Shown in pieces: positions 7,707 through 31,422 of a DNA stretch of 64,000 bases. This DNA is from Pyrobaculum oguniense TE7. GTDB lineage: Archaea > Thermoproteota > Thermoprotei > Thermoproteales > Thermoproteaceae. A model generated the notes under the pieces. The model did no database searches and was not told the origin of the DNA. It was given only the letters and a program-made list of their open reading frames with translations. Location of the stretch: contig CP003316.1 of assembly GCA_000247545.1 (NCBI GenBank), positions 2,265,233-2,329,232 of the forward strand, read 5' to 3'. The first letter of the stretch is position 1. Each line of letters opens with the position of its first letter. Both the position numbers and the translations under genes were made by a program.

Positions 7707-9215
7707 GTGGACGCGGTGATATGGTTTATTCTCAGCTGGCTGGCGCTCGTAGGTGTGTTATACATTTTCAAAAAAGACGCAGTGAAGTACTTCGTCGCGA
7801 TATACTGGAAAAGCGAGAAACTTGTGAAGTACGTGGTGTTGTTTACAGAGAAGCTGAGGTTCATCCCGTTGAAGGTATACCTCGTCTCGGTGTTGGTGCT
7901 GTTTGCGTTGCCTTTGTTTCTAGCTATGCCTTTGATAAGGCCTGACGGACAGCTGAGCTCTCTGCCAGGTTTCCTCTACATCTTGGTAGGTGGCACGGTA
8001 AACGCAATGAGGATGCTTTTAGGCGGAGCGCCAGTACAAGAAGCCGCCGCAGGCTCCGCAGGCGTCACGCCGATTGTGCCGGGCCTTACCCTTCCGTGGG
8101 ATCAACTGCCCTATCTCGCTGTGGCTATTGCCGTAGCTGTAGTACTGCACGAGCTGATGCACGGCTACGCCGCGCTGAGATACGGAATACCGGTGAAATC
8201 CGTGGGCGTCTTCTCCCTATTCTACGTACTAAGCGGCGCCTTTGTGGAGCCCGACGAAGACCAGTTCAAAAAAGCAAGTACCGAGGCCAAAGCCGCGGTG
8301 CTGGCCAGCGGCGTCGCCGCAAACGTCGTGATAGCCATCATCGCAATGTTAATAGGAGTTTTTGGTGCCTGGGCTGGACTTGGCGGCGCCGTGTTTGGCA
8401 CATCAGCTTACGGCATACATCCCGGCGACAGAGTGATAGAAATCCGGGGGTGCGGCTTTGTGGAGAGGGTCTACACGCCAGATGATTTTGTGACGAAGAT
8501 CAACGTGTTAGCGGGACTTGGTCCCCTGCTGGGGATTAACGAAACTATTAGTTGCAAGCCCGGCGACAAAGTGACTCTGGTTGCCTATTCTTGGTTTCAC
8601 AAGTACGAGGTGCAGGTAGACTACTCGAATTTCACAACGCCTTCACAGCTGAGGTGGCTCTACACCGATGGCTCTCTCTACCAAGGCGGGGTTAGGCCTG
8701 GCGACGTTATCAAGAGAGTGGAGGGTTGCGGGGTGGCCAGAGACATCACAAGTAGCGGGGACTTCCTCGCCTTCGTACTGGAGTCGAAAAGAATCTGCAA
8801 GGCAGGCGATGCGGTAAAGGTATATGTTGAGAGAAACGGCACAATCCACGTCTTTAATGTCACACTTGTGGAAAAAGACGGGCGGTTGTTTTACGGCATC
8901 GGGCCAACCAGCTTCCCATTACTGGGATATGACTATGGGCCCGTGAAGAGGGAACAGCTTTACAACACAGATTTTACAAAACTAATTTTCTGGCTCCTGG
9001 TGGTGAACTACGGCCTGGCAGCTATAAACGCCTTGCCAATCTATCCACTAGACGGGGGGCAACTTCTCGCGGCTGTGGCACAGCGGAAGCTCGGCGAAAA
9101 GAAAGGCGCCGCAGTAGTCAACGTAGTGACCTGGGTCCTCGCCGCGATGCTGATCTTCAACATCGCCCTGGGGCTAATAGGCGAGCAGTACAGAGTCCTA
9201 GAAGCGATAAGATGA
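7707..9215 (+). CDS. Site-2-protease-type membrane metalloprotease (M50 family) with PDZ-like insert
   Basis: This 502-residue intramembrane zinc protease has HExxH (LHELMH, H148-E149-H152) in a transmembrane helix and the second M50 signature NALPIYPLDGG at about residues 441-451, which supplies the third zinc ligand Asp. Between them are two PDZ-like repeats, each starting with a G-x-R-P-G-D or H-P-G-D type turn (IHPGDRVIEI, VRPGDVIKRV). The family cleaves transmembrane substrates, often anti-sigma or regulatory proteins; the archaeal substrate is unknown. The GTG at 7707 lies about 25 bp from the ATTATTTTAATATC box. The stop overlaps the next gene's ATG by 4 bp, so they form an operon. Confidence 0.88.
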   Translation: MDAVIWFILSWLALVGVLYIFKKDAVKYFVAIYWKSEKLVKYVVLFTEKLRFIPLKVYLVSVLVLFALPLFLAMPLIRPDGQLSSLPGFLYILVGGTVNAMRMLLGGAPVQEAAAGSAGVTPIVPGLTLPWDQLPYLAVAIAVAVVLHELMHGYAALRYGIPVKSVGVFSLFYVLSGAFVEPDEDQFKKASTEAKAAVLASGVAANVVIAIIAMLIGVFGAWAGLGGAVFGTSAYGIHPGDRVIEIRGCGFVERVYTPDDFVTKINVLAGLGPLLGINETISCKPGDKVTLVAYSWFHKYEVQVDYSNFTTPSQLRWLYTDGSLYQGGVRPGDVIKRVEGCGVARDITSSGDFLAFVLESKRICKAGDAVKVYVERNGTIHVFNVTLVEKDGRLFYGIGPTSFPLLGYDYGPVKREQLYNTDFTKLIFWLLVVNYGLAAINALPIYPLDGGQLLAAVAQRKLGEKKGAAVVNVVTWVLAAMLIFNIALGLIGEQYRVLEAIR

Positions 9216-19900: not shown

Positions 19901-20609
19901 GATCGAAGCCGCCCTCATCCTCCTAGAGCGGGTTCTCAACGGGTTCATTACCTCCCGCTCCGCCCTAGTGGCTGAGTTGCAGGAAATATACAAAGCAAAA
20001 AGGATAGAGCCTTTCCGCGGCCTTTCCAAAGAAGGAGTCTACGACAAGGAGGTCGCAACGGTCTACCTTGTCGGCGTTTTCGGAACTGGGATATTAGCCC
20101 CAGGTGACTTCGACAACGTTTTCTACATAGAAAACAGAAGCCTAGAAGCCGTCGAGATTATCCGCAACGTAGGCGAAGTTGTCACCCAGGAAACAGCGGA
20201 GTCCCTAAGGCGGAAGACGGACGAGATAAAAGGCAAGTCAGAAGAAGACAAGGTTTTCAGAGTGCTAAGGCTGGTCTTTACAGGGACAATACTCGGCTAC
20301 TACCCAGAGATGCTTCTAGTAAAGGCGATTAAGACATACGAAGTAGTCTACCCAAGCCTCGCCGAGCGCCTCGTGAACTACGCCGCGTTCTACAGCGCCT
20401 ATAAAATAGCAGAGGAGATAGCGCTGGGGAAAATAAGGAGCGCCGACAATTTAAAAATCCTGAAATACACCTACTGTCTCAAGATGGGCTTCCAGCAGTG
20501 CAAACCCAGCGACCGTCTGATAGCGGAGGTCGCCCACCACATATACAAAGTTGACAAATCAACACTCTCGAAGCTTTTCGCAAAGGGCGTCCTGCCTAAA
20601 CTAGGCTAG
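19869..20609 (+). CDS. DUF2192-like protein of unknown function
   Basis: This 246-residue, mostly helical protein contains no transmembrane segment. Conserved-looking blocks are ALVAELQEIYKAKRIEPFRGLS, GVFGTGILAPGDFDN and KILKYTYCLKMGFQQCKPSDRLIAEVAHHIYKV. I believe it matches the crenarchaeal DUF2192 family, but this should be checked. Cotranscription with rpl10e, nac and alaS hints at a ribosome- or RNA-linked job, which is inference from position. Its stop overlaps the convergent hydrolase gene by 4 bp. Confidence 0.75.
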   Translation: METAKQLHKDRIEAALILLERVLNGFITSRSALVAELQEIYKAKRIEPFRGLSKEGVYDKEVATVYLVGVFGTGILAPGDFDNVFYIENRSLEAVEIIRNVGEVVTQETAESLRRKTDEIKGKSEEDKVFRVLRLVFTGTILGYYPEMLLVKAIKTYEVVYPSLAERLVNYAAFYSAYKIAEEIALGKIRSADNLKILKYTYCLKMGFQQCKPSDRLIAEVAHHIYKVDKSTLSKLFAKGVLPKLG

Positions 20610-21202
20610 GGGGCACAGTACTTCGCCACAAACTTTTTCACCGCATCAGCAACGACGGCCACGTGGCCCTCTCTCTGTGGGCTATGCGCCATGCCCTCTA
20701 TCTCAACCACCTCGAGGGGGAAGTTGAAGCGGTCTGACAGCCCGGCGAGAATATCGACGTGGGTCCTGGGCACGACCCGATCCTCAGAGCCTCTTATGTA
20801 GAGCACAGGCGGCATCCCATTGCCAATAAAGCGGGAGGGCGACGTCTGCTCCAGCTTATTCCCGAGAGAGGCGAGATTGTTGGCCAACTTTTTCAGGTAA
20901 GGATCCTCCGACTGAAGCAGGTACTGCAGTTGTAGCCTCCTATCGACGGGGGAAGCCACCGCAATTACACATTTAACACTGCCGGGGTTCCGGGCCGCCA
21001 GTAGGAGCGCCACTGTACCCCCCATGCTGTGGCCCGCCACCACGTCTGCGGGTAGCTCCTTCAGCCCCTCCTCGTAGCCGTCATCCACATCTCTAATAAC
21101 CGGCGTCACAACTTTGAACCCCGCCTCGCGGAGCGGGGCTATAAGCCAGTCGATGTTTTCCGGGGAGCTTTTGTATCCGTGGAAAGCAACCGCCTTACCC
21201 AT
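20606..21202 (-). CDS. Alpha/beta hydrolase
   Basis: This 198-residue serine hydrolase has a complete triad: Ser in GHSMGG (about residue 58), Asp in GSEDRVVP and His in GMAHSPQ. It also shows the oxyanion stretch HGYKSSPENIDWL near the N-terminus. The frame is open to 21238, but the ATG at 21202 lies about 24 bp from the CTTTAAAAATTT box (21221-21232), and the longer version would start inside or upstream of that promoter. The substrate is unknown; the small size resembles esterase or dienelactone-hydrolase-like enzymes. Confidence 0.85.
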   Translation of the reverse strand: MGKAVAFHGYKSSPENIDWLIAPLREAGFKVVTPVIRDVDDGYEEGLKELPADVVAGHSMGGTVALLLAARNPGSVKCVIAVASPVDRRLQLQYLLQSEDPYLKKLANNLASLGNKLEQTSPSRFIGNGMPPVLYIRGSEDRVVPRTHVDILAGLSDRFNFPLEVVEIEGMAHSPQREGHVAVVADAVKKFVAKYCAP

Positions 21203-21276
21203 GGCGCGTACAGTGGAGAGCTTTAAAAATTTAGACAACGGCAGAAATATTTAATACACGATGTGCAGCCAGGTAC

Positions 21277-22098
21277 ATGCGTCTCGAAGTAAAGATCAGC
21301 GGACTGCCGCGGGACAAAAAGAACATCCTCGTGATGGCTTGCCCCGAGCCCTCGTTGGCAGGTGTCATAGCAGTTGAGTATCTAATAGATGCGCTTAAGA
21401 TGGAGGAGATAGGGGCAATTAAAATCACGGAGATGCCTCCAGTAATCGCCGTCGTCAACGGCGCGGCGAAACTGCCTCACAGGCTGTTCTACTCGAAAGA
21501 GGCGGGTATCCTTGCCATTAGGCAACACGTCCCCATACCGCCGCAGATCTACGCTGAGTTCATCCACAAGGTCCTAGATTGGGCCGAGGAAAACAAGGTA
21601 AAACTCGTGGTCTGCCTATCGGCCATGCCAGCCGCCGGCGAGAGGGAAAGTGAAAACGTCTACTTCGTCACGGAGGAGGGCCTAGTGGAGAAGTTTAAGC
21701 AGTACGGCTTCGAGCCTATAAAAGAAGCCACTGTGACCGGGCTCGAGGGGGCATACCTAGACGCTGTGCTCGGCAGGGGCATAGACGGCGCACTCATAAT
21801 CGCCGAGTCTAAGCTACTCACCGCCATAAAGAGGCTGGTAGACAGCGGCAAAATCGCCACCCACCGCGACGTGATGCTTATACTCAACGACCTGGTCGGG
21901 CGGGTCGGCCCCGACGTAGGCGCCGCGTTGAAGCTAATAAACGCCGTGGCCAAGCTCGCAGATATCCAAATAGACACGACAAAGTTGCAAGAACACGCAA
22001 CTAAGTACGCCTTCCTCATCGAGAAGAACATAGAGGCAATCTTAAAGCCGGCGGAGGCCATGGCGCCGGCGAGGCGCGAGGTGCCGCTGGTGTTCTAA
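21277..22098 (+). CDS. PAC2 domain protein (proteasome assembly chaperone family)
   Basis: This 273-residue protein has the PAC2 pattern: an N-terminal ILVMACPEPSLAGVIAVEYLIDAL, then ITEMPPVIAVVNG, then the ADP/AMP-like P-loop-free fold with FVTEEGLVEKFKQYG and DAVLGRGIDGALIIAES. Eukaryotic PAC1/2 and archaeal PbaA-type proteins help build proteasomes, so the role here is inferred by family. The ATG at 21277 is about 26 bp from the GAAATATTTAATAC box. Its last 59 bp, including the stop codon, recur at 23150-23208 in a degenerate form (see findings). Confidence 0.85.
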   Translation: MRLEVKISGLPRDKKNILVMACPEPSLAGVIAVEYLIDALKMEEIGAIKITEMPPVIAVVNGAAKLPHRLFYSKEAGILAIRQHVPIPPQIYAEFIHKVLDWAEENKVKLVVCLSAMPAAGERESENVYFVTEEGLVEKFKQYGFEPIKEATVTGLEGAYLDAVLGRGIDGALIIAESKLLTAIKRLVDSGKIATHRDVMLILNDLVGRVGPDVGAALKLINAVAKLADIQIDTTKLQEHATKYAFLIEKNIEAILKPAEAMAPARREVPLVF

Positions 22099-22424
22099 TT
22101 TTTCTTTAGACCCATTGGAGAGGCCTCGCCAGCTGTCCCCGGGTGATTGGGCCGTTCTACTCGTTTAGAGGATGACTCATGCACCCAATGGAAGTCCTTA
22201 GAAAGGTCGGCGTGCCAGAATTTGCCGCCGATACAAACGCCCCTAGGGACGGCATCTCCGCACAGCAAGCGACGGGGCGAGGGCTTTTTTAATGCCTCTC
22301 CTAGGCTACGGCGACCACTCGCCAAGCGCCTTCGCGCATCACCTGAGCAGTTCCTAGCCGACGCCTTTGACCGGGGTTTTGGGAAGGGCGCCGCTAGTAT
22401 TTAAAAAAAGACCAAGATCTTTAC
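22099..22424. other. Intergenic region upstream of PaREP1 gene, inside the duplicated-3'-end interval
   Basis: No convincing gene is seen. An inverted repeat CCATTGG (22112-22118) / CCAATGG (22185-22191) could close a structured transcript of about 80 nt after the PAC2 stop. The right end holds the box A (AGTATTTAAAAAAAG, about 22397-22411) of the PaREP1 gene. Confidence 0.4.
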
Positions 22425-22892
22425 GTGGAGAACATAATGGCAGAGGCCAGGAAGAGGGGAATAGACGTGGAATATGTCATCATTTCAGCCCTATCAAAGG
22501 CCATGGGGGCAGACCCGGCTGAAGAGGCAAAGGCCCATTTAGAGTTGGCAATGCGGTATTTAGAAGAGGCGGAGAAATTAGAGGATCCCGTACAGGCCTC
22601 TGTAAAGGCGTATAAGGCCTTTGAGCAGGCGGTTAAGGCCGCCGCGATTTATCTGGGTCTCGAAGAGGCGAGGCAAGCAGAACGAGAGGGCCGGTGGAGG
22701 GCCGCTACTTTTTTCTCCGCCATTAAGAAGTTGGAGAAGAAATTCGGCATAGAATTTCGCCTAGCCGCACGGGAGGCTTGGTTTCTCCACGTAGAAGGGT
22801 TTCACGAGGGGAGACTAAGTCTTGAAGAGGTGAAAGAGAGCGTAACATATGTGAGGCGCGGGATCAACCTCGTGGCCGTAGCGGTGCGCTGA
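22425..22892 (+). CDS. PaREP1 family protein
   Basis: This 155-residue helical protein belongs to the PaREP1/PaREP8 family, a lineage-specific multicopy family in Pyrobaculum and relatives. Diagnostic blocks are AHLELAMRYLEEAEKLEDPVQASVKAYKA, EQAVKAAAIYLGL, EGRWRAATFFSAIKKLEKKFG and AWFLHVEGFHEGRLS, which resemble HEPN-like helical bundles. Function is unknown. The GTG start lies about 23 bp from a box A. It sits between the true and the displaced copies of the PAC2 3' end, which suggests it arrived with, or is the cargo of, an insertion. Confidence 0.85.
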   Translation: MENIMAEARKRGIDVEYVIISALSKAMGADPAEEAKAHLELAMRYLEEAEKLEDPVQASVKAYKAFEQAVKAAAIYLGLEEARQAEREGRWRAATFFSAIKKLEKKFGIEFRLAAREAWFLHVEGFHEGRLSLEEVKESVTYVRRGINLVAVAVR

Positions 22893-23149
22893 GCCACCTA
22901 GACGGCATAATGTTTTATTATGGGGCAAAGCAATTGGGTTGCGCCTAGTTGAGAGGTAAAGAGAGGCAATACTTAGATGTTGACTCTTTACAGACTTCCA
23001 GTCATGGCCCGGTATAATGAATATATCGCTAAGGGGGCACATCTCAGGGGTGCTACTGGGCCTATGCGTGAGGCTTTAGATTATGGCCCAGTCTCACAAA
23101 CTCACCTAGGCCTCAAAGCTACCTCGCCAGTTCCGCTGATTGTTCCGCC
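22893..23149. other. Gene-free stretch between PaREP1 and the displaced PAC2 tail
   Basis: Short frames here (for example one from 22977) run through several unrelated compositions into the displaced PAC2 tail and the rpl5 promoter, and do not look like a gene. No RNA motif or repeat other than the PAC2 tail was recognised. Confidence 0.4.
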
Positions 23150-23208
23150 TCTTCAAGCCCGCAGAGGCCGTGGCGGCGAAGGGGCCAGAGGTGCCGCTGG
23201 TGTTCTAA
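23150..23208 (+). pseudogene. Displaced, degenerate copy of the PAC2 gene 3' end
   Basis: These 59 bp align without gaps to the last 59 bp of the PAC2 gene (22040-22098), with about ten mismatches. The final 21 bp, including the stop codon, are identical (22078-22098 versus 23188-23208). The peptide reads LFKPAEAVAAKGPEVPLVF, against ILKPAEAMAPARREVPLVF in the intact gene. The frame is closed just upstream by TGA, so this is only a tail. It lies directly before the rpl5 promoter. Confidence 0.8.
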
Positions 23209-23239
23209 AAATTTTAAAAACAGCCAAAGCTAGACGCCT

Positions 23240-23779
23240 ATGCACAGCTGGAAGGAGCTAGTGCTCGTAAAACAGCACCCAATGCAGAGGATCTTCATCG
23301 AGAAGGTCGTCGTGAACATCGGAGTTGGGACCGGAGGCGAGAGGCTAGAAAAGGCGGCTGAACTGTTAAAAGAACTAACGGGGGCAGAGCCCTCTAGGAG
23401 GAGGGCGAAGCGGTCGATTAAGGACTTCGGCATTAGGAAGGGGGAGCCGATAGGCGTGATGGTCACGCTGAGGAGAGACCAAGCAGTCAACTTCTTAATG
23501 AGGGCGTTGCAGGCGGTGAACAACCGCGTAAAGAGGACCAGCTTCGACGACAGGGGGAACGTCTGCTTCGGCATCAAGGAGCACATCCTCCTACCCGGCG
23601 TCAAGTACGACCCAGCTGTTGGAATATGGGGCATGGACGTCTGCGTGAAGCTAGCAAAGCCGGGGCTCAGGGTGCAACTGAGGAGAAGGAGGAGGAGTAA
23701 AGTAGGCAAAAAACAGCTCGTCACCAGGGAGGAGGCAGTAGAATTCTTCCAGAAGGTTCTAGGCGTACAGGTTGACTAG
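23240..23779 (+). CDS. rpl5: 50S ribosomal protein L5
   Basis: This 179-residue 5S-rRNA-binding protein shows the L5 hallmarks IEKVVVNIGVGTGGERLEKA, RRRAKRSIKDFGIRKGEPIGVMVTLR and FDDRGNVCFGIKEH. The ATG at 23240 lies about 26 bp from the CTAAAAATTTTAAAA box at about 23207-23221. The gene stands alone here rather than in the large ribosomal protein operon. Confidence 0.95.
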   Translation: MHSWKELVLVKQHPMQRIFIEKVVVNIGVGTGGERLEKAAELLKELTGAEPSRRRAKRSIKDFGIRKGEPIGVMVTLRRDQAVNFLMRALQAVNNRVKRTSFDDRGNVCFGIKEHILLPGVKYDPAVGIWGMDVCVKLAKPGLRVQLRRRRRSKVGKKQLVTREEAVEFFQKVLGVQVD

Positions 23780-24038
23780 GACAGTCGGCGGCGCCCCGCG
23801 GTTGACCTCGGGGTAAAACCCTACACCATTAGGGCCAACGGCGCCGAGTTCTAGTACTCCCCTAAGAGTGGCGCGCTAGTTGCAGCGCAGGTGAAGAGCC
23901 GATAGAGCCAGAGATCTCGGCGTAGGTTTAAACAACATTGCGCCTCCGCCGCGGGCTACATGCCCATCCCGTTACTCGTAGCGTCGGCGCCTGCCTGTCC
24001 AGGAGAAGAGTTTTTTAATCTAGTCTACTTGCCGCATT

Positions 24039-24545
24039 ATGCTAGTGGTTGCCATTTCAGACAGCCATGACAACGTCGTAGCTATTAGGCGGGTTGGTGA
24101 GGAGGCGAGGCGCAGGGGGGTTAAGCTGATCCTGCACGCCGGCGACTGGGTATCGCCATTTGCCGCTAGGTTTTTAAGGGAGGCGGTGGGCGAGGGGGTA
24201 AGGATAGTTGGCGTATGGGGCAACAACGAGGGGGAGAGACCCTATTTTCTAGAAACGGCGCGGAAATACGGCGTTGAAATCGCTGGCGACGCCGCGGAGC
24301 TGGAGGTCAGCGGCAGGAAAATAGCGGTGTACCACGGCACATCGCCAGTGTTGCTGAGGGCGTTGGCTGAGTCCGGCCTCTACGACGTGGTGATCTACGG
24401 CCACACCCACCAAGCCTCGCTGGAGAGGAGGGGGAGGACGCTGGTGGTGAACCCCGGGGAGCTGTGCGGTTGCCTAACCGGCAGGTCGAGCTACGCCCTT
24501 ATAGACTTGGCGAAGCTGGAGGCCGATTTGGTATTTCTCACGTGA
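24039..24545 (+). CDS. Phosphodiesterase, YfcE/MJ0936 metallophosphatase family
   Basis: This 168-residue dimetal phosphoesterase has all metal-ligand blocks: SDSHDN, HAGDWV, GNNEG, YHGTSP and YGHTHQ. Archaeal relatives such as MJ0936 hydrolyse phosphodiesters in vitro; the natural substrate is unknown. The ATG lies about 24 bp from a TTTTTTAATC box (about 24010-24019). The stop overlaps the next gene's GTG (GTGA), so the two are an operon. Confidence 0.9.
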   Translation: MLVVAISDSHDNVVAIRRVGEEARRRGVKLILHAGDWVSPFAARFLREAVGEGVRIVGVWGNNEGERPYFLETARKYGVEIAGDAAELEVSGRKIAVYHGTSPVLLRALAESGLYDVVIYGHTHQASLERRGRTLVVNPGELCGCLTGRSSYALIDLAKLEADLVFLT

Positions 24546-25786
24546 AGTGGACTCCTGGAGAGCTGATATCCTTCACTGCCAAGGTTCTCTACGAAATAAG
24601 CAAAGGTCTTACTCTTGACTACGCTTTTCAAAAGGTAAAGAGGGGGTGGCGTGAGTTAGATAGCTTCAAGGTATTTTACGACGTGGTCTTCGACGCTGTG
24701 CGCCATTACTATTTTCTCCAATTCGCCGCTTCGAAGATGTTCGGCTCTTCTGGCGCAAAAGCCGTAGCTAAGGCGTGGTTTATTTTTAGGGCAGACTCTC
24801 TCCTCTACAACAAAGACATGGTTAACAGCGTGCGGAAACGGCTGTTAAAAAGGGCTCTGACAAAGCCGGACCACGTAATGGCGGCGTTGGAGGAGTTAAG
24901 GGAGGATCGCGCCAGATACTTCTCGGTGAAGTACAGCTATCACCCCAACATAGTGTCGACACTGCTGTCGCATTTCCCGCCGGATGAAGTGGAGAAGTTG
25001 CTAGAAGCGGGGAACCACACCTGGATTTGGCTGAGGATAAACACGCTGAAGGCGGACGTGGACAAGGCGTTGAGGCAGTTGGAGGCCGAGGCCGAGGTGG
25101 AGCCCCATCCTAAAATCCCCTTCGCCGTGTTGCTTAAATCAGCTAAGAGGCCTGTCCAGTACCTAGAGGCCGTGAGGCGGTTTGTGGCCGTTCCCCAAGA
25201 CCTGGCCTCAATATACGCCGTGCTTTCGCTTAGGCCAGAGCCCGGCGACAGGATAATCGACCTCGCCGCGGCGCCGGGGATGAAGACCAGCCTAATAGCC
25301 CAGCTAGCGGAGGGAAGGGCCAAGATCGTTGCCGTGGACCTCTCGGCGAAGCGTGTAGCGAGGATGAGGCACCTCCTGAAAAACCTAGGCGCAGGAGACT
25401 TCGTAGAGGTCGTCAGGGGAGACTCCCGGGTCTTAAAGACAAGGAAGTTCGACAAGGCGCTTCTAGACGCGCCTTGCACCTCCAGCGGGGCCTTTACAAA
25501 GGAGCCCGCCGTGAAGATATACCCCCGTGTCGAGGAGGCGCCGAGGTACTCCGCCTTGCAGAAAGCCCTCCTCAAAAACGCATTGGCGCTGGCAGAGGAG
25601 GTTGTGTACGCCGTCTGTAGCATACTTCCACAAGAAGGCGAAGAGGTGGCGGCGTCTGCCGGCGCAGAGGTGGAAAAGCCCCATCCTGACCTCGCCCCGT
25701 CGTACACGCCCGGCGTCGGCGGGAGAACCTTCCCCCACATCCACAGAAGCGAGGCCTTCTTCATAGCGCGTCTCAGGAAAAGATAG
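24542..25786 (+). CDS. RNA 5-methylcytosine methyltransferase (NOL1/NOP2/Sun, RsmB family)
   Basis: This SAM-dependent methyltransferase of about 414 residues targets rRNA or tRNA. It has an N-terminal NusB-like helical region, then motif I DLAAAPGMKTS, motif IV DAPCTSSGAF with the release cysteine, and motif VI AVCSILPQEGEE with the nucleophilic cysteine. The frame is open upstream to 24464, but the GTG at 24542 in a GTGA overlap with the phosphodiesterase stop is the natural start. The last part of its coding sequence (25733-25777) recurs at 28704-28748 with 43 of 45 identical bases (see findings). Confidence 0.9.
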   Translation: MKWTPGELISFTAKVLYEISKGLTLDYAFQKVKRGWRELDSFKVFYDVVFDAVRHYYFLQFAASKMFGSSGAKAVAKAWFIFRADSLLYNKDMVNSVRKRLLKRALTKPDHVMAALEELREDRARYFSVKYSYHPNIVSTLLSHFPPDEVEKLLEAGNHTWIWLRINTLKADVDKALRQLEAEAEVEPHPKIPFAVLLKSAKRPVQYLEAVRRFVAVPQDLASIYAVLSLRPEPGDRIIDLAAAPGMKTSLIAQLAEGRAKIVAVDLSAKRVARMRHLLKNLGAGDFVEVVRGDSRVLKTRKFDKALLDAPCTSSGAFTKEPAVKIYPRVEEAPRYSALQKALLKNALALAEEVVYAVCSILPQEGEEVAASAGAEVEKPHPDLAPSYTPGVGGRTFPHIHRSEAFFIARLRKR

Positions 25787-25948
25787 GCGTACGCCACCCG
25801 CGTCTTAGGTAGAGGAACTGTGGTTGACCGCGACAAGTACTAGAGGTGGACGCGGGGTCTACTCCGTGGCCTACAAGCGCCAATTATAATGCCATGCGCT
25901 TAGGCCCGCCTCAAGGCGCGACATGCGGCGGGGTTCGCGCCGTGGGCG

Positions 25949-26707
25949 CTACTTTGGGCGTCGGGGCGGCGTTTTGTCAACACCGCGTGCGTACATCTTC
26001 CAGACTATCCAAGCCACGGGTATGAGGGTTGCAACGCCCTGAAGACCTACAGGTTCCCAAAGCCACCTCACATCCGCGAGCTGTGGATACAGCATATAGT
26101 ACGTAGGCGCCCACGAGTTGACGGCCCCGTGTAGCAATGCGGCCCCCCATACGCCGTATTGTAAATAAGCCGCTGTGTGGAGTAGGGAGAGGAGAATAGT
26201 GGGAAGGACGAAGAGGAGCACGCCCTCAACGCGCCAAGACCAGCCGTACTCATAGCCGAGTAGAATAGCCGGCGTGTGCCAAAAACCCCACACAACCCCC
26301 ACCATGAGAGACGCCTTGAAGTAGCCAAATCTCTGGGCGAGTGCTGGCAGTAAATAGCCCCGCCAGCCGTACTCCTCGCCGAAGGCGCCTATAAATGCCA
26401 CGGCCGCCGGCATAAAAGGAGCTGTGAGCAAGTACATTAAGTGGCTCGGCGCCGCCTGGGGCTGGACGGGCTGAAATGGCAACGTGGAGACCACCAATAG
26501 GGCGACCCACAGCGCGATCGGCCACACAGACTTCCAGTAACTTATCCTCCTCCCGGCGGTCAGCGCCGGGGGCGGGGGCCTAAACCCCTCAGCAAGCGCG
26601 CCCAGTGCAGGCGCCCACATAGCGGCGAACAGCCAGAAGTAGGAGGTGGGATGGGCAAACTGAAAAGCCCACCCTAGGCCGAAGGTCACCGCTATAAACC
26701 TGCGCAT
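25949..26707 (-). CDS. CPBP family intramembrane metalloprotease
   Basis: This 252-residue protein has about seven or eight hydrophobic segments and the three CPBP (CAAX/Abi) motifs: EEYGWRG with paired glutamates, WGFWHTP with His, and LLHGAVNS with His. Members process prenylated or bacteriocin-type peptides and often serve as self-immunity proteins. The start overlaps the upstream PH-like gene by 16 bp, so they are one transcript. It lies between the true and displaced 3' ends of the methyltransferase gene, together with a radical SAM gene. Confidence 0.85.
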   Translation of the reverse strand: MRRFIAVTFGLGWAFQFAHPTSYFWLFAAMWAPALGALAEGFRPPPPALTAGRRISYWKSVWPIALWVALLVVSTLPFQPVQPQAAPSHLMYLLTAPFMPAAVAFIGAFGEEYGWRGYLLPALAQRFGYFKASLMVGVVWGFWHTPAILLGYEYGWSWRVEGVLLFVLPTILLSLLHTAAYLQYGVWGAALLHGAVNSWAPTYYMLYPQLADVRWLWEPVGLQGVATLIPVAWIVWKMYARGVDKTPPRRPK

Positions 26708-27204
26708 ACCTCCCTATCCCCCTCTTCGCAACATATTACATACCGCTTACCGTCTACCTCTACCACTATCCACTCGTCGGAACAGGAAGGCGTAGAAAAC
26801 GCGACCGCCCTCCCAAACGCAGTGGAGCAGATGCCGTAAAGAGACCAGAGGTCGAGGCGCCATCCCACGGGGCACATGTAGATGTAGTTCAGGAGCTCCG
26901 ACGTGGAGAACTTCTTCACCACCCTGAAGCCTGTGATTCTCTTAGTAAGCCAACGGGTCTTGAGGATAATCTCGCCGCGCCTCACAACAACGCGGACAGG
27001 CTCCAACAAAGGGATAGTAGCCATCGCCGCCAGCCCCGTTCCCATGACCAGATAAGGCCCTAGGCGCGCCAGAGGCTCTTTTGGAGGATTTACGCTGTGC
27101 AAATAGAAGAGGAAGATCCCCGAAGCCGTTGCACCGGCTGAGATTAGGAAAAAGACAACAAGCGAAATCTTGTGTTTCCTCCACCTGCGCTGGGCCATCG
27201 ACAT
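26692..27204 (-). CDS. Two-TM membrane protein with a bacterial-PH-like domain
   Basis: This 170-residue protein begins with a basic N-terminus, followed by two transmembrane helices (about residues 14-33 and 46-66). A soluble domain then starts with VRVVVRRGEIILKTRWLTKRITGFRVV, a strand pattern like bacterial PH domains (YdbS/YdbT type). The tail is cysteine-containing (CSDEWIVVEVDGKRYVICCEEGDREVC). The family assignment is by pattern and tentative. It is cotranscribed with the CPBP protease and divergent from a Tat-signal protein. Small PH-like membrane proteins are known in some bacteriocin-immunity loci, which gives the neighbourhood some meaning. Confidence 0.6.
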   Translation of the reverse strand: MSMAQRRWRKHKISLVVFFLISAGATASGIFLFYLHSVNPPKEPLARLGPYLVMGTGLAAMATIPLLEPVRVVVRRGEIILKTRWLTKRITGFRVVKKFSTSELLNYIYMCPVGWRLDLWSLYGICSTAFGRAVAFSTPSCSDEWIVVEVDGKRYVICCEEGDREVCAGL

Positions 27205-27234
27205 GAAAACTTAAAAATTCGCATAAAAAACTTT

Positions 27235-27633
27235 ATGGCGGAAGAGGTTACCTCCCAAAGAAATTCGGAAAGAAACTACGAAGATTTGATAAAGAGACGT
27301 GAGGCGATTCAGTGTATTGCATCAGCCGGGTTGTTGGCATTGTCCATAAACCCAATATTGGCGATGGCTTTTGCTCCACGGGATGTATCGGGCGCACAAC
27401 CAGTTGACAGAGTAGTTGTAGATTTCATGGAAAAAGAGAAGTGGAAAGATGATAGTACAGATGTATACTACATAAAGATGCAAGTCACTACTAATCAGCA
27501 AAAATCTACAGTAATAGGCTTCGTCGTACGCGATGTGGCAAGCGACTTCTTGCCGCCGCTTATAGTAATTGGCGAAGGCGAAAAAGATGCAAATATTCTT
27601 GCTTTTAGTTTTTCTACTTACTTACAGGTGTGA
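27235..27633 (+). CDS. Small exported protein with Tat-like signal, unknown function
   Basis: This 132-residue protein starts at ATG 27235, about 20 bp after an A/T box shared with the divergent PH-like gene. Residues 18-45 read KRREAIQ followed by a hydrophobic run CIASAGLLALSINPILAMAFA. This matches a twin-arginine (Tat) signal preceded by a 17-residue polar leader. The mature part is about 85 residues, beta-rich and acidic. DNA here is more AT-rich than in its surroundings. Its 3' end overlaps the radical SAM start by about 47 bp in another frame. No family was recognised. Confidence 0.6.
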   Translation: MAEEVTSQRNSERNYEDLIKRREAIQCIASAGLLALSINPILAMAFAPRDVSGAQPVDRVVVDFMEKEKWKDDSTDVYYIKMQVTTNQQKSTVIGFVVRDVASDFLPPLIVIGEGEKDANILAFSFSTYLQV

Positions 27634-28538
27634 TTTTTTGTGTGCTCACTGTAGTGTTGGGGCTGGGCCGCATCGTGGTGAGGTTTTGCCGAGAGAGCTT
27701 ATGATTAAGGCAATCAAGGAGGCTTACGACGTTGCATCTATCAGGTTGGTAGTTTTTACTGGCGGCGAGCCGACTCTCTTTTTAGATCAGGTAGTGGAAG
27801 GTGTAAAGTTAGCTTCAGAGCTTGGTTTTTCAACTAGGCTTGTGACTAACGGGTGGTGGGCTACGACGTATGAAAAGGCATATGAAATCTTATCTAGGCT
27901 GAAATCTGCCGGTCTTAAAGAGCTTAATATAAGCTATGACAGATTCCATGATCCTTGGCTGGCCAAGTTTGGCAGGTTTACAAATGTGGTAAATGCGGTG
28001 AGAGCGACGCGGGAGCTGGGAATAGTTGCGCTAATAGGGGTTTTAAAGCTGGCCGATGAACGTCAGCCTACACGAGAGCTTATAAAAAAGAAGCTAGAAG
28101 AATTCGGGCTAGCAGATGTGATGGTTATAGAGGATTTCCCCGCTCGTATTGGCAGAGCTTCTCAGCTACCCGGCGAGCTGATACCTCGCAACGACAAGCT
28201 TCTTAACATGGGGTGTAACGAAGCTGGGGCTAGGCTCACCATCTCCTAATGGTGATGCCATGTATTGTTGCGGCCATCCAATAACCAGGAGTGAGGCACA
28301 GTGGTTTTTTAAAGTAGGCAATATCTCGCAAGACTCGCTTGTAGATATAGAAAAGAGAATTAGGAGAAACGCATTGGTTCTTGCATTAAGGTATGCCGGC
28401 CCTCTTGCTATATTAAGAGAACACGGCATTGAGTTAGAGGAAGATTTTAAAACACCGTGCGAGGTCTGTTATCACGTAGCAACAAGAGGGCATAGGCTTG
28501 ATAGGTCAAAGCTTATAAAGCTAGCCCGTTTAGATTAG
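27587..28538 (+). pseudogene. Radical SAM/SPASM enzyme gene, frameshifted
   Basis: The first part (27587-28249) has the cluster motif CDFLCAHC, then FTGGEPT for SAM binding, and ends GCNEAGARLTIS before a TAA. In another frame the text resumes immediately: PNGDAMYCCGHPI, followed by FKVGNI and FKTPCEVCYH to 28538. GARLTIS-PNGDAMYCCG is a standard SPASM junction, so the intact gene would be one chain of about 317 residues. A net 2-bp loss (or 1-bp gain) in the CTCCT run at about 28243-28249 splits it. It may be a true pseudogene, a sequencing error or a programmed frameshift. The neighbours (CPBP protease, small peptide gene) suggest a peptide-modifying role. Codon use is AT-shifted compared with flanking genes. 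Confidence 0.75.
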
Positions 28539-28539
28539 T

Positions 28540-28692
28540 GTGTTTGACGTAGTTGCTGTAGGCGTATTAGCCGGCTTGGCGGCGTATGTATACAACGAGA
28601 TCTATAAATTTGTAAAAAGCTCGCTCAAATTAGCCATTGCGGCGGCTGCTACGGCGTCGGCAATCGCCTTATTGCCTTATCTCATACGTTAA
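28540..28692 (+). CDS. Unannotated 50-residue hydrophobic peptide
   Basis: A GTG at 28540 follows the radical SAM stop by 1 bp and opens a frame of 50 codons ending TAA at 28690-28692. The peptide has two hydrophobic helices (FDVVAVGVLAGLAAYVY and LKLAIAAAATASAIALLPYL) joined by a charged link (NEIYKFVKSS). It is too short for standard length cut-offs. Tight coupling to a radical SAM gene suggests either a small membrane partner or a precursor peptide; this is inference. It contains no cysteine, so a thioether (sactipeptide) product is unlikely. Confidence 0.55.
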   Translation: MFDVVAVGVLAGLAAYVYNEIYKFVKSSLKLAIAAAATASAIALLPYLIR

Positions 28693-28703
28693 TGCATGCG
28701 TAT

Positions 28704-28748
28704 CCCCACATCCGCAGAAGCGAGGCCTTCTTCGTAGCGCGTCTCAGG
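28704..28748 (+). pseudogene. Displaced copy of the RNA methyltransferase gene 3' end
   Basis: These 45 bp match 25733-25777 within the m5C methyltransferase gene at 43 positions, with the coding frame kept. The copy reads PHIRRSEAFFVARLR and then meets a TAG stop; the intact gene reads PHIHRSEAFFIARLRKR. The distance between copies is 2,971 bp. Everything between is accessory (CPBP protease to the 50-residue peptide). Confidence 0.85.
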
Positions 28749-28789
28749 TAGAGCTGAAGCCCAGCTGTGTGTTGTATATATAACTGCAA

Positions 28790-29206
28790 ATGGGAAGGAT
28801 TGTGCTGGACTGCGATGAGTACTGGAGGTGGATGAGGCAGACCGAGCATACTTTACAGTCTATACGGGCTGACTTGGACATCGGGTCCTACTCATTGGCC
28901 TGCTTCAAGGCGCTACAAGCCGCTGAGTTTGCAACTAGGGCGTTGCTACGGGCGTTAGGGCGGCCTGCGTTTGGCCACAACCTAGTTGCGCTGTTTAACG
29001 AGTTGGCTGGGCTGTGCCCCTCAACTGGCGGGGAGTTGAGGTTCTGCGTCGGCTATCTGGATAAGATGTACCTAACGCCTAGGTACCCAGATGCCTTGAC
29101 CGAGGGCTTCCCCTACGAGCGGTATACGGAAGAGGAGGTGGCTAAGGCGCGGGAGTGCGCCGAGCAGGTAATCGGCTGGGTTAAGGGCTGTTCCCCATGT
29201 CGATAG
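28790..29206 (+). CDS. HEPN domain protein (probable toxin or RNase partner of MNT)
   Basis: This 138-residue helical protein carries the HEPN R-x4-H motif as RPAFGHNL at about residues 59-66. The preceding helix (SLACFKALQAAEFATRALLRAL) is typical of HEPN domains. HEPN proteins paired with minimal nucleotidyltransferases form toxin-antitoxin-like modules, in which the HEPN protein is an RNase neutralised by nucleotidylation. The ATG lies about 22 bp from a TATATATAAC box (about 28764-28773). It overlaps the MNT gene by 10 bp. Confidence 0.85.
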   Translation: MGRIVLDCDEYWRWMRQTEHTLQSIRADLDIGSYSLACFKALQAAEFATRALLRALGRPAFGHNLVALFNELAGLCPSTGGELRFCVGYLDKMYLTPRYPDALTEGFPYERYTEEEVAKARECAEQVIGWVKGCSPCR

Positions 29207-29559
29207 AGGAGATAATAAGAAAAAGGACGCGGGAGCGGGAGGAGGTAATTGAGGGAGTAAAGAGGTACGTGGAGGCGCTTAGGGCGAGGTGGGGCAAACT
29301 AACAGCCGTGCTCTACGGTTCGTACGCCAGGTGCGACTTTAATTTGTGGAGCGACATCGACGTGATAATAGTATCCGAGCGGTTTAGAGGCACAAACTTC
29401 GTGACTAGGTGTGTCGAGTTGTTCGACGCCCCGCCTAGGATGGAGGCGATCTGCTGGACGCCGGAAGAGGGGGCAAAGGCTCTGGAAAAACCTTGGTGGC
29501 GCGAGGCCTTAAAACACCGCGTGGTCCTAGCCGACGACTACGGCCTATTCTGCGAATAA
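29197..29559 (+). CDS. Minimal nucleotidyltransferase (MNT) partner of HEPN protein
   Basis: This 120-residue protein has the nucleotidyltransferase core motif GSYARCDFNLWSDIDVIIV, which gives GSxxR and the DxD metal ligands, at about residues 41-59. It resembles the antitoxin of HEPN/MNT modules. The N-terminal helix is highly charged (EEIIRKRTREREEVIEGVKRY). It overlaps the upstream HEPN gene, so expression is coupled. A strong hairpin follows its stop. Confidence 0.87.
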   Translation: MSIEEIIRKRTREREEVIEGVKRYVEALRARWGKLTAVLYGSYARCDFNLWSDIDVIIVSERFRGTNFVTRCVELFDAPPRMEAICWTPEEGAKALEKPWWREALKHRVVLADDYGLFCE

Positions 29560-29561
29560 CT

Positions 29562-29590
29562 GTAGCGTCGCGTTGCGAGCAAGACGCTAC
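29562..29590. terminator. Hairpin after the HEPN/MNT module
   Basis: GTAGCGTC (29562-29569) and GACGCTAC (29583-29590) pair perfectly over 8 bp around a 13-nt loop, starting 3 nt past the MNT stop codon. There is no U-tract directly after it, so termination is not certain; it could instead protect the transcript end. Confidence 0.4.
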
Positions 29591-29755
29591 CGGATTGGGT
29601 TATCTCGTAGATTAGCCGCCACAGACAGAGGAGGCTGGGCCTTTTCTTAAGACAGCCGGCATAGGGCCTCCGGTGTTGCCCCGCCGCGAGTTGTATTGAA
29701 AAATTTCTACTATTGGCAATATTCACCTTAAAAAAGTGCTCAAAAAGAAGCAACT

Positions 29756-30526
29756 ATGAAAATAGCGGTACTCATAAAAACAGCTCTTGACACTAGCCAG
29801 CTCCGGGTAAGGGATACGGTGGTGGTGGAGGAGACTCCGCTAAAGATAAGCGACATAGACAGAAACGCGGTGGAGGAGGCAGTTAAGCTGAAGGGCCAAG
29901 ACAAGGCATATGGCGTAACTGTTCTGAAATGGGGCCCGTTGCAGAGGAGGATACAGGAGGCCGAGAACGTGTTGAGGGAGGCGTTGGCGATGGGGCTAGA
30001 CGAGGCCTACCTAGTGGCCGACGAGAAGTTGATAAACGCCAGCCACGCCGCCACGGCTAAGGCGATTGCCGCGGTGGTGAAGAAGGTGGGCGCAGACTTG
30101 GTACTCGCCGGCGAGGCCACTGTGGACAACTACACGGGGCAGATACCGCCGAGGGTAGCCGCCGAGCTGGGCTGGCCGGTAGTCACCTATGTCAGGGAGC
30201 TGAAGGTGGAGGGCGGAAAGCTGGTGGCGAGGCGCGATCTGGAAGACCACGTAGAGGTGGTGGAGGTGCCCCTCCCCGCAGTTGTATCCGTTACGAGGGA
30301 GATAAACCAGCCAAGGATACCCACTCTCCTGGCCATCAGGGCGGCGATGAAAAAGCCGATCAACAAGCTAACCCTCGCCGACCTGGGCATATCAGTCGAG
30401 CCTAAGGTATCGGCGGCTTACAAGCCGTTGCTAATGCAGAGAAAGAAGGTGGTAATTAAGGACGGGACGCCTGAGGAAAAGGCAGAAAAGCTCATACAAT
30501 ATCTAAAACAGGAGGGGGTGATATGA
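29756..30526 (+). CDS. etfB: Electron transfer flavoprotein beta subunit
   Basis: This 256-residue subunit of the ETF heterodimer accepts electrons from acyl-CoA dehydrogenases. It begins MKIAVLIKTALDTSQLRV and shows the AMP-binding stretch DNYTGQIPPRVAAELGWPVVTYV and the recognition-loop segment PRIPTLLAIRAAMKKPI. The ATG at 29756 lies about 25 bp from the CCTTAAAAAAG box. It overlaps etfA by 4 bp. The catabolic cluster at 35.7-54.7 kb contains an acyl-CoA dehydrogenase that would need such a carrier. Confidence 0.95.
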   Translation: MKIAVLIKTALDTSQLRVRDTVVVEETPLKISDIDRNAVEEAVKLKGQDKAYGVTVLKWGPLQRRIQEAENVLREALAMGLDEAYLVADEKLINASHAATAKAIAAVVKKVGADLVLAGEATVDNYTGQIPPRVAAELGWPVVTYVRELKVEGGKLVARRDLEDHVEVVEVPLPAVVSVTREINQPRIPTLLAIRAAMKKPINKLTLADLGISVEPKVSAAYKPLLMQRKKVVIKDGTPEEKAEKLIQYLKQEGVI

Positions 30527-31422
30527 AGACGCTGGTAGTCTACCCCAGTAAGGAGCTTCTGTACGTAGCCTCAACACTTGGCGGGGAAGTGGTAGCCCTT
30601 GTCTTCAACGAGGGCGAGGCAGAGGCGATCAAGGGCAAGGCGCATAGGGTGGTTGTGGCAAATGTAGATGCAAGGTTGCCGGACGCCGTTGCCGAGGCTG
30701 CGGCGAAGGTCGCGCAGGGCGTAGACGTCGTGTTGTTGCCATCTACTAAAAACGGCAAGACCGTGGGCGGCCTCCTCGCCCAGAGGATCGGCGCAGAGCT
30801 AATAGTAGACGCGACCTCTCTCAGAGTAGAGGGCGGTGCTCTCAAGGCGGAGAGATACGTCTTCGGAAACAAGGCCGTGGCCACCGTAGAAGTCCCGCTC
30901 CCCGCCGTCGCCACCGTGCCCCCAGGTAGGTTCCAAGGAGAGCCGCCGGCTGTACAGACGTCAGTAGAGAAGCTACAGCTGGACACTGCGCCCAAGACGA
31001 GGATAGTGTCGGTAGAGGAGAAGGCGAGGGGGGCCGTCAAGCTGGAGGAGGCTGAGATAATAGTCTCGGTAGGCAGGGGCTTCAAGAAGAAGGAGGACTT
31101 GCAGATGGCCTTCGAGCTCGCCAAGGTTCTCGGAGGCCAGGTAGGATGCTCCCGCCCAATCGCCGCCGACCTCAAGTGGTTGCCGGAAGAGCACTGGGTC
31201 GGCCTCTCGGGCAAGAAGGTGAAGCCGAAGCTATACCTGGCAGTCGGAATCTCGGGCCAGCCCCAGCACATTGCCGGCATATTGGAGAGCAGAATCATAG
31301 CCGCAATAAACAACGACCCCTCTGCCCCAATATTCCAAAACGCCGATTACGGCGTTGTGGAGGATCTATACAAAATAGTGCCGATACTTATAAACAAGAT
31401 ATCCAAACTAAAGGGTCAATAA
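30523..31422 (+). CDS. etfA: Electron transfer flavoprotein alpha subunit
   Basis: This 299-residue subunit carries FAD. The C-terminal FAD domain is complete: VSVGRGFKKKEDL, GCSRPIAADLKWLP, KLYLAVGISGQPQHIAGI and INNDPSAPIFQNADYGVVEDLYKIVP. The start is in an ATGA overlap with etfB. No ETF-quinone oxidoreductase (FixC) gene adjoins it. A pyrimidine-rich tract (31429-31442) follows the stop. Confidence 0.95.
   Translation: MKTLVVYPSKELLYVASTLGGEVVALVFNEGEAEAIKGKAHRVVVANVDARLPDAVAEAAAKVAQGVDVVLLPSTKNGKTVGGLLAQRIGAELIVDATSLRVEGGALKAERYVFGNKAVATVEVPLPAVATVPPGRFQGEPPAVQTSVEKLQLDTAPKTRIVSVEEKARGAVKLEEAEIIVSVGRGFKKKEDLQMAFELAKVLGGQVGCSRPIAADLKWLPEEHWVGLSGKKVKPKLYLAVGISGQPQHIAGILESRIIAAINNDPSAPIFQNADYGVVEDLYKIVPILINKISKLKGQ

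What the first reader, a model, noticed from the sequence alone, without database searches (positions are those of the whole stretch)
22040..23208. Second case of a displaced 3' gene end: PAC2 tail on both sides of a PaREP1 gene
The last 59 bp of the PAC2 gene (22040-22098) recur without gaps at 23150-23208 with about ten differences, and the last 21 bp are identical. The PaREP1 gene lies between. Two such structures within 7 kb suggest a repeated process rather than chance. The more diverged copy implies an older event. The rpl5 promoter follows the distal copy directly, as if PAC2 and rpl5 were once neighbours.
Basis: partly seen in the sequence, partly recalled or inferred. Interest (0 to 1): 0.8.

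Follow-up and report, generated by a model that had tools for sequence, protein, structure and literature searches.

The report
PaREP1 insertion with duplicated gene tail
In a heat-loving archaeon a small stretch of repeat-family DNA sits between two genes that are neighbours in most of its relatives, and the last 59 letters of the first gene are found on both sides of it; this is a real insertion scar, but no sign of a general process was found.

Summary
An intact PaREP1 gene lies between. Six of nine relatives with PAC2 have rpl5 directly behind it, 30-36 bp away, so the two were neighbours. The distal copy with the rpl5 promoter is the native junction: only it finds the relatives' junctions, and it is closer to the three nearest. 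So 1.1 kb of PaREP DNA (PaREP1 plus a relic of a PaREP2b end) entered at PAC2's 3' end, and PAC2 keeps a second, diverged tail. The 'repeated process' fails: among 43 PaREP1 matches only this one, none of 46 loci (35 places) in relatives, and 0 of 744 genes in evenly spaced samples show a nearby tail copy. Whether the proximal tail came with the insert or is a local duplicate is not settled; P. arsenaticum would decide it and was not available.

The parts
21277..22098 (+). PAC2-family gene, 273 aa, intact
   Evidence: PF09754 113.7 bits; found in 9 of 10 other genomes of the genus
22040..22098 (+). proximal tail copy (in frame, end of PAC2: ILKPAEAMAPARREVPLVF*)
22099..23149 (.). inserted DNA between the two tail copies, 1051 bp
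   Evidence: absent between PAC2 and rpl5 in six relatives; its flanks beside PaREP1 match nothing else in this genome except the PaREP2b relic
22317..22369 (-). relic of the last ~17 codons of a PaREP2b gene (two stops inside)
   Evidence: 40/52 identical to the PaREP2b 3' end near G000:C1:202097; matches further PaREP2b copies, none with the reversed control; PF07775 for the parent gene
22425..22892 (+). PaREP1 gene, 155 aa, intact, with a TATA-like stretch at 22397-22407
   Evidence: PF05942 89 bits; sequence match to 2jpu/2q00
23150..23208 (+). distal tail copy, displaced native end of PAC2 (LFKPAEAVAAKGPEVPLVF*); agreement with the nearest relative reaches one base further, to 23149
23209..23239 (+). 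rpl5 promoter region, 31 bp, TATA-like AAATTTTAAAAA
   Evidence: same place and spacing as in relatives
23240..23779 (+). rpl5 (ribosomal protein L5), 179 aa
   Evidence: PF00281, PF00673
25811..25970 (+). relic of the start of a HEPN gene after the native RsmB/F end
28704..28753 (+). second, decayed copy of the RsmB/F end, 92% identical
28790..29559 (+). HEPN gene (28790-29206) and MNT-type nucleotidyltransferase gene (29197-29559)
   Evidence: PF05168, PF01909

Best explanation
In this lineage PAC2 and rpl5 were direct tandem neighbours. About 1.1 kb of PaREP-island DNA (an intact PaREP1 gene and a broken end of a PaREP2b gene) entered at the 3' end of PAC2. The native last 59 bp were pushed downstream, where they still sit in front of the rpl5 promoter; the PAC2 gene was left whole because the entering DNA carried, or recombination supplied, another PAC2 tail of 83% identity. 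This works like integration into the 3' end of a protein gene with restoration of the end, the join being most likely by recombination between similar tail sequences (the 21 identical bases are the only long shared block). Shown: the repeat, the ancestral order, the native nature of the distal copy, the PaREP content. Inferred: that the proximal tail came from outside, and the recombination step; no recombinase gene is left in the insert.
For: Repeat 49/59. PAC2-rpl5 tandem, spacers 30-36 bp, in 6 of 9 relatives with PAC2 (spacers read from those coordinates). A genus-wide DNA search with 22040-23239 found the PAC2-rpl5 junction of G001, G002, G003 and G009 with the distal copy only (query from 1109/1110), never with the proximal copy. 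Codon-aligned tail differences, proximal/distal, to the three nearest: 17/11, 16/12, 18/12 of 57. My reading of the 11 base positions that differ between the copies (the 10 plus the base before the repeat): 5 clearly derived in the proximal, functional copy, 1 in the distal, 5 unclear; under neutral decay of the distal copy the reverse is expected. PaREP2b end relic in the insert.
Against: No integrase or transposase in the insert; the genome has no tyrosine integrase over cut-off, only a weak match on the 16.9-kb element. Integration sites usually leave identical repeats; these are 83% identical. The polarity count is small: 5 of 6 has p 0.11 against equal rates and 0.018 against a 2:1 rate in favour of the distal copy. 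PAC2's divergence from relatives by 20-codon windows shows no clear jump at the tail (the last windows are high but not unique). For the six more distant of the nine relatives the distal copy is closer by at most 3 bases or not at all, and for L011 the proximal is closer (22 against 25). No relative has PaREP1 behind PAC2, so no donor is seen. In two relatives other DNA sits between PAC2 and rpl5 without any tail copy.
Confidence: 0.5

Rival explanations
1. Local duplication at the insertion point: a staggered break or repair synthesis copied about 60 bp while PaREP DNA was joined in; both copies started identical and drifted apart.
For: The repeat flanks the insert on both sides and stops exactly where the insert begins. 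Divergence of 17% is of the order of the 20% or so between species here, so enough time is possible. Needs no donor and no recombinase.
Against: The functional copy has more clearly derived changes than the silent one (my count, weak statistics), and the differences avoid the last 21 bp.
Confidence: 0.3
2. Relic of a second PAC2 gene: a duplicated or imported PAC2 copy (with PaREP1) took over and the old gene's body was deleted, leaving its last 59 bp before rpl5.
For: The same genome has a tail of this kind elsewhere: at 1,799,229-1,799,297 only the last 69 nt of an archaeal ATPase gene are left 100 bp before a PaREP1 match, the spacing (100, 103 bp) of two fuller ATPase-PaREP1 pairs. G003 has a broken 3' part of a second PAC2 far from its PAC2 gene, with an rpl5 fragment 0.9 kb away in the other orientation.
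Against: The distal copy starts abruptly, with no trace of more PAC2 body before it. PAC2 as a whole is about as close to relatives as rpl5 is (90.5-90.8% and 92.7-93.3% to the nearest three), so nothing marks it as an incomer.
Confidence: 0.15
3. Chance similarity or assembly artefact.
For: None found.
Against: 49/59 against at most 36/59 in 100 random 64-kb sequences; the distal copy with its promoter is the orthologous junction of relatives; the copies differ at ten sites, so this is not one stretch assembled twice.
Confidence: 0.02

Closest known systems
Integrated elements of archaea in 3' ends of protein-coding genes (e.g. Thaumarchaeota, PMC6563490, passages read)
   Same: Insert at the 3' end of a protein gene, the end restored, a direct repeat at both sides; the paper gives 29-69 bp (median 45) for sites of crenarchaeal elements (citing She et al. 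2002) and 14 of 68 thaumarchaeal elements in 3' regions of protein genes.
   Different: No recombinase, only 1.1 kb, and the two repeats are 83% identical instead of the same.
PaREP1/8 (RHH-HEPN) and PaREP2 repeat families of Pyrobaculum (PMC3558965; PMC2701414; PMC3710099; passages read)
   Same: The insert holds a PaREP1 gene and a PaREP2b relic; P. oguniense regions absent from P. arsenaticum are listed with paREP types, and the paper names PaREP2b as a putative transposon.
   Different: The passages read describe no duplicated neighbour-gene ends at PaREP1 genes.
Target-site duplication by transposons
   Same: Direct repeat on both sides of inserted DNA.
   Different: 59 bp is long, the copies are unequal, and no terminal inverted repeats lie at the insert's ends.

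Membership tests
PaREP1 family (PF05942) | Profile match over the curated cut-off | tested here: met
   89 bits against 24.4, residues 37-145 on profile 1-113 of 115
Site-specific integrated element at a gene 3' end | Gene end restored in frame and displaced copy of the end at the far side | tested here: met
Site-specific integrated element at a gene 3' end | Identical attachment-site core in both copies | tested here: inconclusive
   21 bp identical at the stop-codon end, 28 of 38 before it
Site-specific integrated element at a gene 3' end | Recombinase gene in the element | tested here: not met
   PaREP1 is the only one of three ORFs tested in or over the insert with a Pfam match; no chromosomal tyrosine integrase over cut-off
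Site-specific integrated element at a gene 3' end | Empty site in relatives | tested here: met
   6 of 9 relatives with PAC2
Transposon insertion with target-site duplication | Terminal inverted repeats at the insert's ends | tested here: not met
   decay could have removed them
A PaREP1-linked process that duplicates neighbour gene ends | Other PaREP1 genes with the upstream neighbour's 3' end on the far side | tested here: not met
   1 of 43 matches (this one) in the genome; 0 of 46 loci (35 distinct places) in relatives, within 1.5 kb on each side

The most novel reading that the evidence does not exclude
PaREP islands enter at the 3' ends of genes by a recombination that swaps in a look-alike gene end, without a tyrosine integrase, so that they are littered with displaced 3' gene ends: PAC2, the RsmB/F-like gene, the PaREP2b end and the archaeal-ATPase ends beside PaREP1 genes would be marks of one process.
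Probability: 0.08. Interest if true: 0.65.

Novelty: new member of a known kind. Interest (0 to 1): 0.3.

Why it matters
It gives one well-resolved insertion scar for the PaREP families, which are numerous in Pyrobaculum (13-43 PaREP1 matches in each of 9 genomes) and whose way of moving is not explained in the passages I read. It also shows that DNA can enter between PAC2 and a ribosomal protein gene without breaking either one. It does not establish a new process.

Tried and rejected
Tested and not supported: tail copies at other PaREP1 genes. In one search two other PaREP1 places had strong repeats on both sides, but these are ordinary paralogues (two ATPase genes at 1774685; by my reading ferredoxin-type genes at 1235918), and a third (433480) is part of two neighbouring PaREP1 genes.

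A broader idea, that gene 3' ends are copied more often than starts or middles, looked strong at first: in 30 stretches (the window and 29 PaREP1-centred ones; 336 ORFs of 100 aa or more) 22 ends, 7 starts and 8 middles had copies with little further gene similarity. Reading 14 of the pairs showed that many were overlaps between my own stretches, antisense ORFs or shortened paralogues. In evenly spaced samples it vanished: of 392 genes here 0 ends, 2 starts, 3 middles; of 352 genes in G001 1 end, 2 starts, 1 middle, with 0 ends within 8 kb in either.

Other dead ends: no relative of the PaREP1 protein confirmed in viral contigs; no RNA family in 20000-31000; flank 22893-23149 has no convincing relative in held DNA. 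The genome collection scan gave six named relatives but not P. arsenaticum. PAC2 loci of the family outside the genus (8 of 8 genomes) did not show the tandem order within the 1.5 kb held; two have rpl5 tail to tail.

Full report
Genome. The window is G000:C1:2265233-2329232; G000 has 2,452,920 bases, its contig C1 2,436,033. These are the sizes of Pyrobaculum oguniense TE7, chromosome 2,436,033 and element 16,887 bp (PMC3558965, passages). Names of the unnamed relatives I could only guess from genome size; G006 (Pyrobaculum sp. WP30), G007 and G010 can be tied to named records through equal contig lengths.

Observation. The last 59 bp of PAC2 (22040-22098) recur at 23150-23208, 49 of 59 identical, no gap, last 21 identical. 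Similarity stops at once: the ten-base blocks upstream have 0-3 matches, and the bases after the two stop codons differ. The next best place in the window has 32 of 59; 100 random 64-kb sequences gave at most 36. A search of the whole genome with 22040-23239 found no third copy of the tail.

Ancestral order. PAC2 was found in 10 of 11 genomes of the genus, this one included; the one without it is 74% complete. Of the nine other genomes with PAC2, six have rpl5 directly behind it on the same strand: spacers 30-36 bp from those coordinates, with an A/T-rich TATA-like stretch at the same place. Here the distal tail is followed by rpl5 after 31 bp. Of the other three, G002 has 1.3 kb with a 380-aa gene between, G007 1.6 kb with a 488-aa gene on the other strand (no Pfam match for either), and in G006 rpl5 is not within the 12 kb read. 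Neither G002 nor G007 has a PAC2 tail copy before rpl5. So this junction has been opened more than once, and elsewhere without a duplicated tail.

Which copy is native. With the 1.2-kb query, the relatives' PAC2-rpl5 junctions were hit in G001, G002, G003 and G009, and each time by the distal copy. In a codon alignment the distal copy differs from G001, G003 and G009 at 11, 12 and 12 of 57 bases, the proximal at 17, 16 and 18; for the six more distant relatives the two are about equal, and for L011 the proximal is closer. The distal copy keeps LFKP and AVA, common in the genus; the proximal has ILKP and AMA. Of the 11 positions that differ I read five as derived in the proximal copy, one in the distal and five as unclear; this is my own reading and small (p 0.11 for equal rates). 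It argues mildly against a silent copy that decayed from a local duplication.

The insert. Between the copies are 1051 bp. PaREP1 (22425-22892) is intact and has a solved relative by sequence, 2jpu/2q00; 2q00 is the structure the HEPN survey gives for Parep1/8 (PMC3710099, passages). That survey counts the family as HEPN with the H but not the R of the motif; PMC2701414 (one passage) describes it as a fusion with an RHH domain, expanded in Pyrobaculum. Upstream of PaREP1, on the other strand, 22317-22369 is a relic of the last 17 or so codons of a PaREP2b gene: 40 of 52 identical to the copy near 202,097, weaker to others, none with the reversed sequence; the parent is PF07775, with 28 matches in the genome, several of them pieces of one gene. 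So the insert is a piece of a PaREP island. No terminal inverted repeats were found at its ends.

Is it a repeated process? The genome has 43 PaREP1 matches, 41 over the cut-off, some of them pieces of one gene. For all 43 I compared up to 2.5 kb on one side with that on the other: beside this place, only ordinary paralogues and parts of neighbouring PaREP1 genes gave strong pairs; the rest were 30 bits or less (15 best listed). In relatives, 46 loci were tested with 1.5 kb on each side; they come and stand for 35 distinct PaREP1 places, since both searches returned 12 of them, while alone counted 220 matches in eight genomes; none reached 38 bits. In evenly spaced samples of 400 kb each, 0 of 392 genes here and 0 of 352 in G001 have a tail-only copy within 8 kb, against 2 of 62 in the window. 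The window's two cases are thus unusual, but they do not show a genome-wide process.

The other case. The RsmB/F-like gene's end (25733-25782) recurs at 28704-28753 (46 of 50), but the similarity goes on into the start of a HEPN gene: a relic at about 25811-25970, the intact gene at 28790 with an MNT gene behind it. Here the proximal copy has the residues of the relatives (PHIHRSEAFFI) and the distal is decayed (PHIRRSEAFFV), the opposite of PAC2. In the six relatives where both ends of the stretch were read, the stretch between this gene and etfB is 4-5 kb long; in G001 it holds other genes, among them one that I take for citrate synthase, no family search made; its best match here is at 1,075,858. 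So this place has been rebuilt in another way.

Mechanism. The facts fit an entry of PaREP DNA at the 3' end of PAC2 with the end restored by a second tail. The join may have been recombination between similar tails, as the one long identical block is the last 21 bp, or a site-specific integration whose enzyme is lost; the genome has no chromosomal tyrosine integrase over the Pfam cut-off, only a weak match on the small element. Local duplication during a break repair is the main rival. A third way is seen in the same genome: an archaeal-ATPase gene (PF01637) stands 100 and 103 bp before a PaREP1 match at two places, and at a third only its last 69 nt are left, 100 bp before PaREP1, so a tail can also be what is left of a deleted gene.

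Novelty. Insertion into the 3' end of a protein gene with repeats on both sides is known in archaea (PMC6563490, passages; sites within protein genes also in PMC8371274, passages). For PaREP1 I found four papers in the held library and for PaREP2 with Pyrobaculum one; the passages that I read in three of them do not mention duplicated neighbour ends. I did not read them whole.

Noticed in passing
G000:C1:1773571-1774585, 1803351-1804361, 1799229-1799297 (stretches L055, L057): An archaeal ATPase gene (PF01637) stands 100 and 103 bp before a PaREP1 match on the same strand, which looks like a two-gene unit; at a third PaREP1 gene only the last 69 nt of the ATPase gene are left, at the same distance.
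   Followed up: partly
L015 (G003:C1:1280332-1283535): A broken 3' part of a second PAC2 gene, about 68% identical to G003's own PAC2, with a 94-bp rpl5 fragment 0.9 kb away in the other orientation and a DUF169 gene between.
   Followed up: partly
window 25786-29756: Between the RsmB/F-like gene and etfB, relatives have other genes (in G001 one that I take for citrate synthase, no family search); here a CAAX-protease-like gene, a radical SAM gene and a HEPN-MNT pair stand instead.
   Followed up: partly
whole genome G000: No tyrosine recombinase (PF00589) over the cut-off on the chromosome; one weak match in a 446-aa frame on the small contig, while all 14 control genomes have one.
   Followed up: no
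L065 (G000:C1:429500-438500), about 2761-2826 and 8161-8217: A 57-bp piece, 95% identical, occurs twice 5.4 kb apart; at one place it follows a metallophosphatase-like frame that seems broken (my reading).
   Followed up: no
window 22400-22416 and 23213-23229: The promoter regions of PaREP1 and rpl5 share 14 of 17 bases; probably only two A-rich TATA regions.
   Followed up: no
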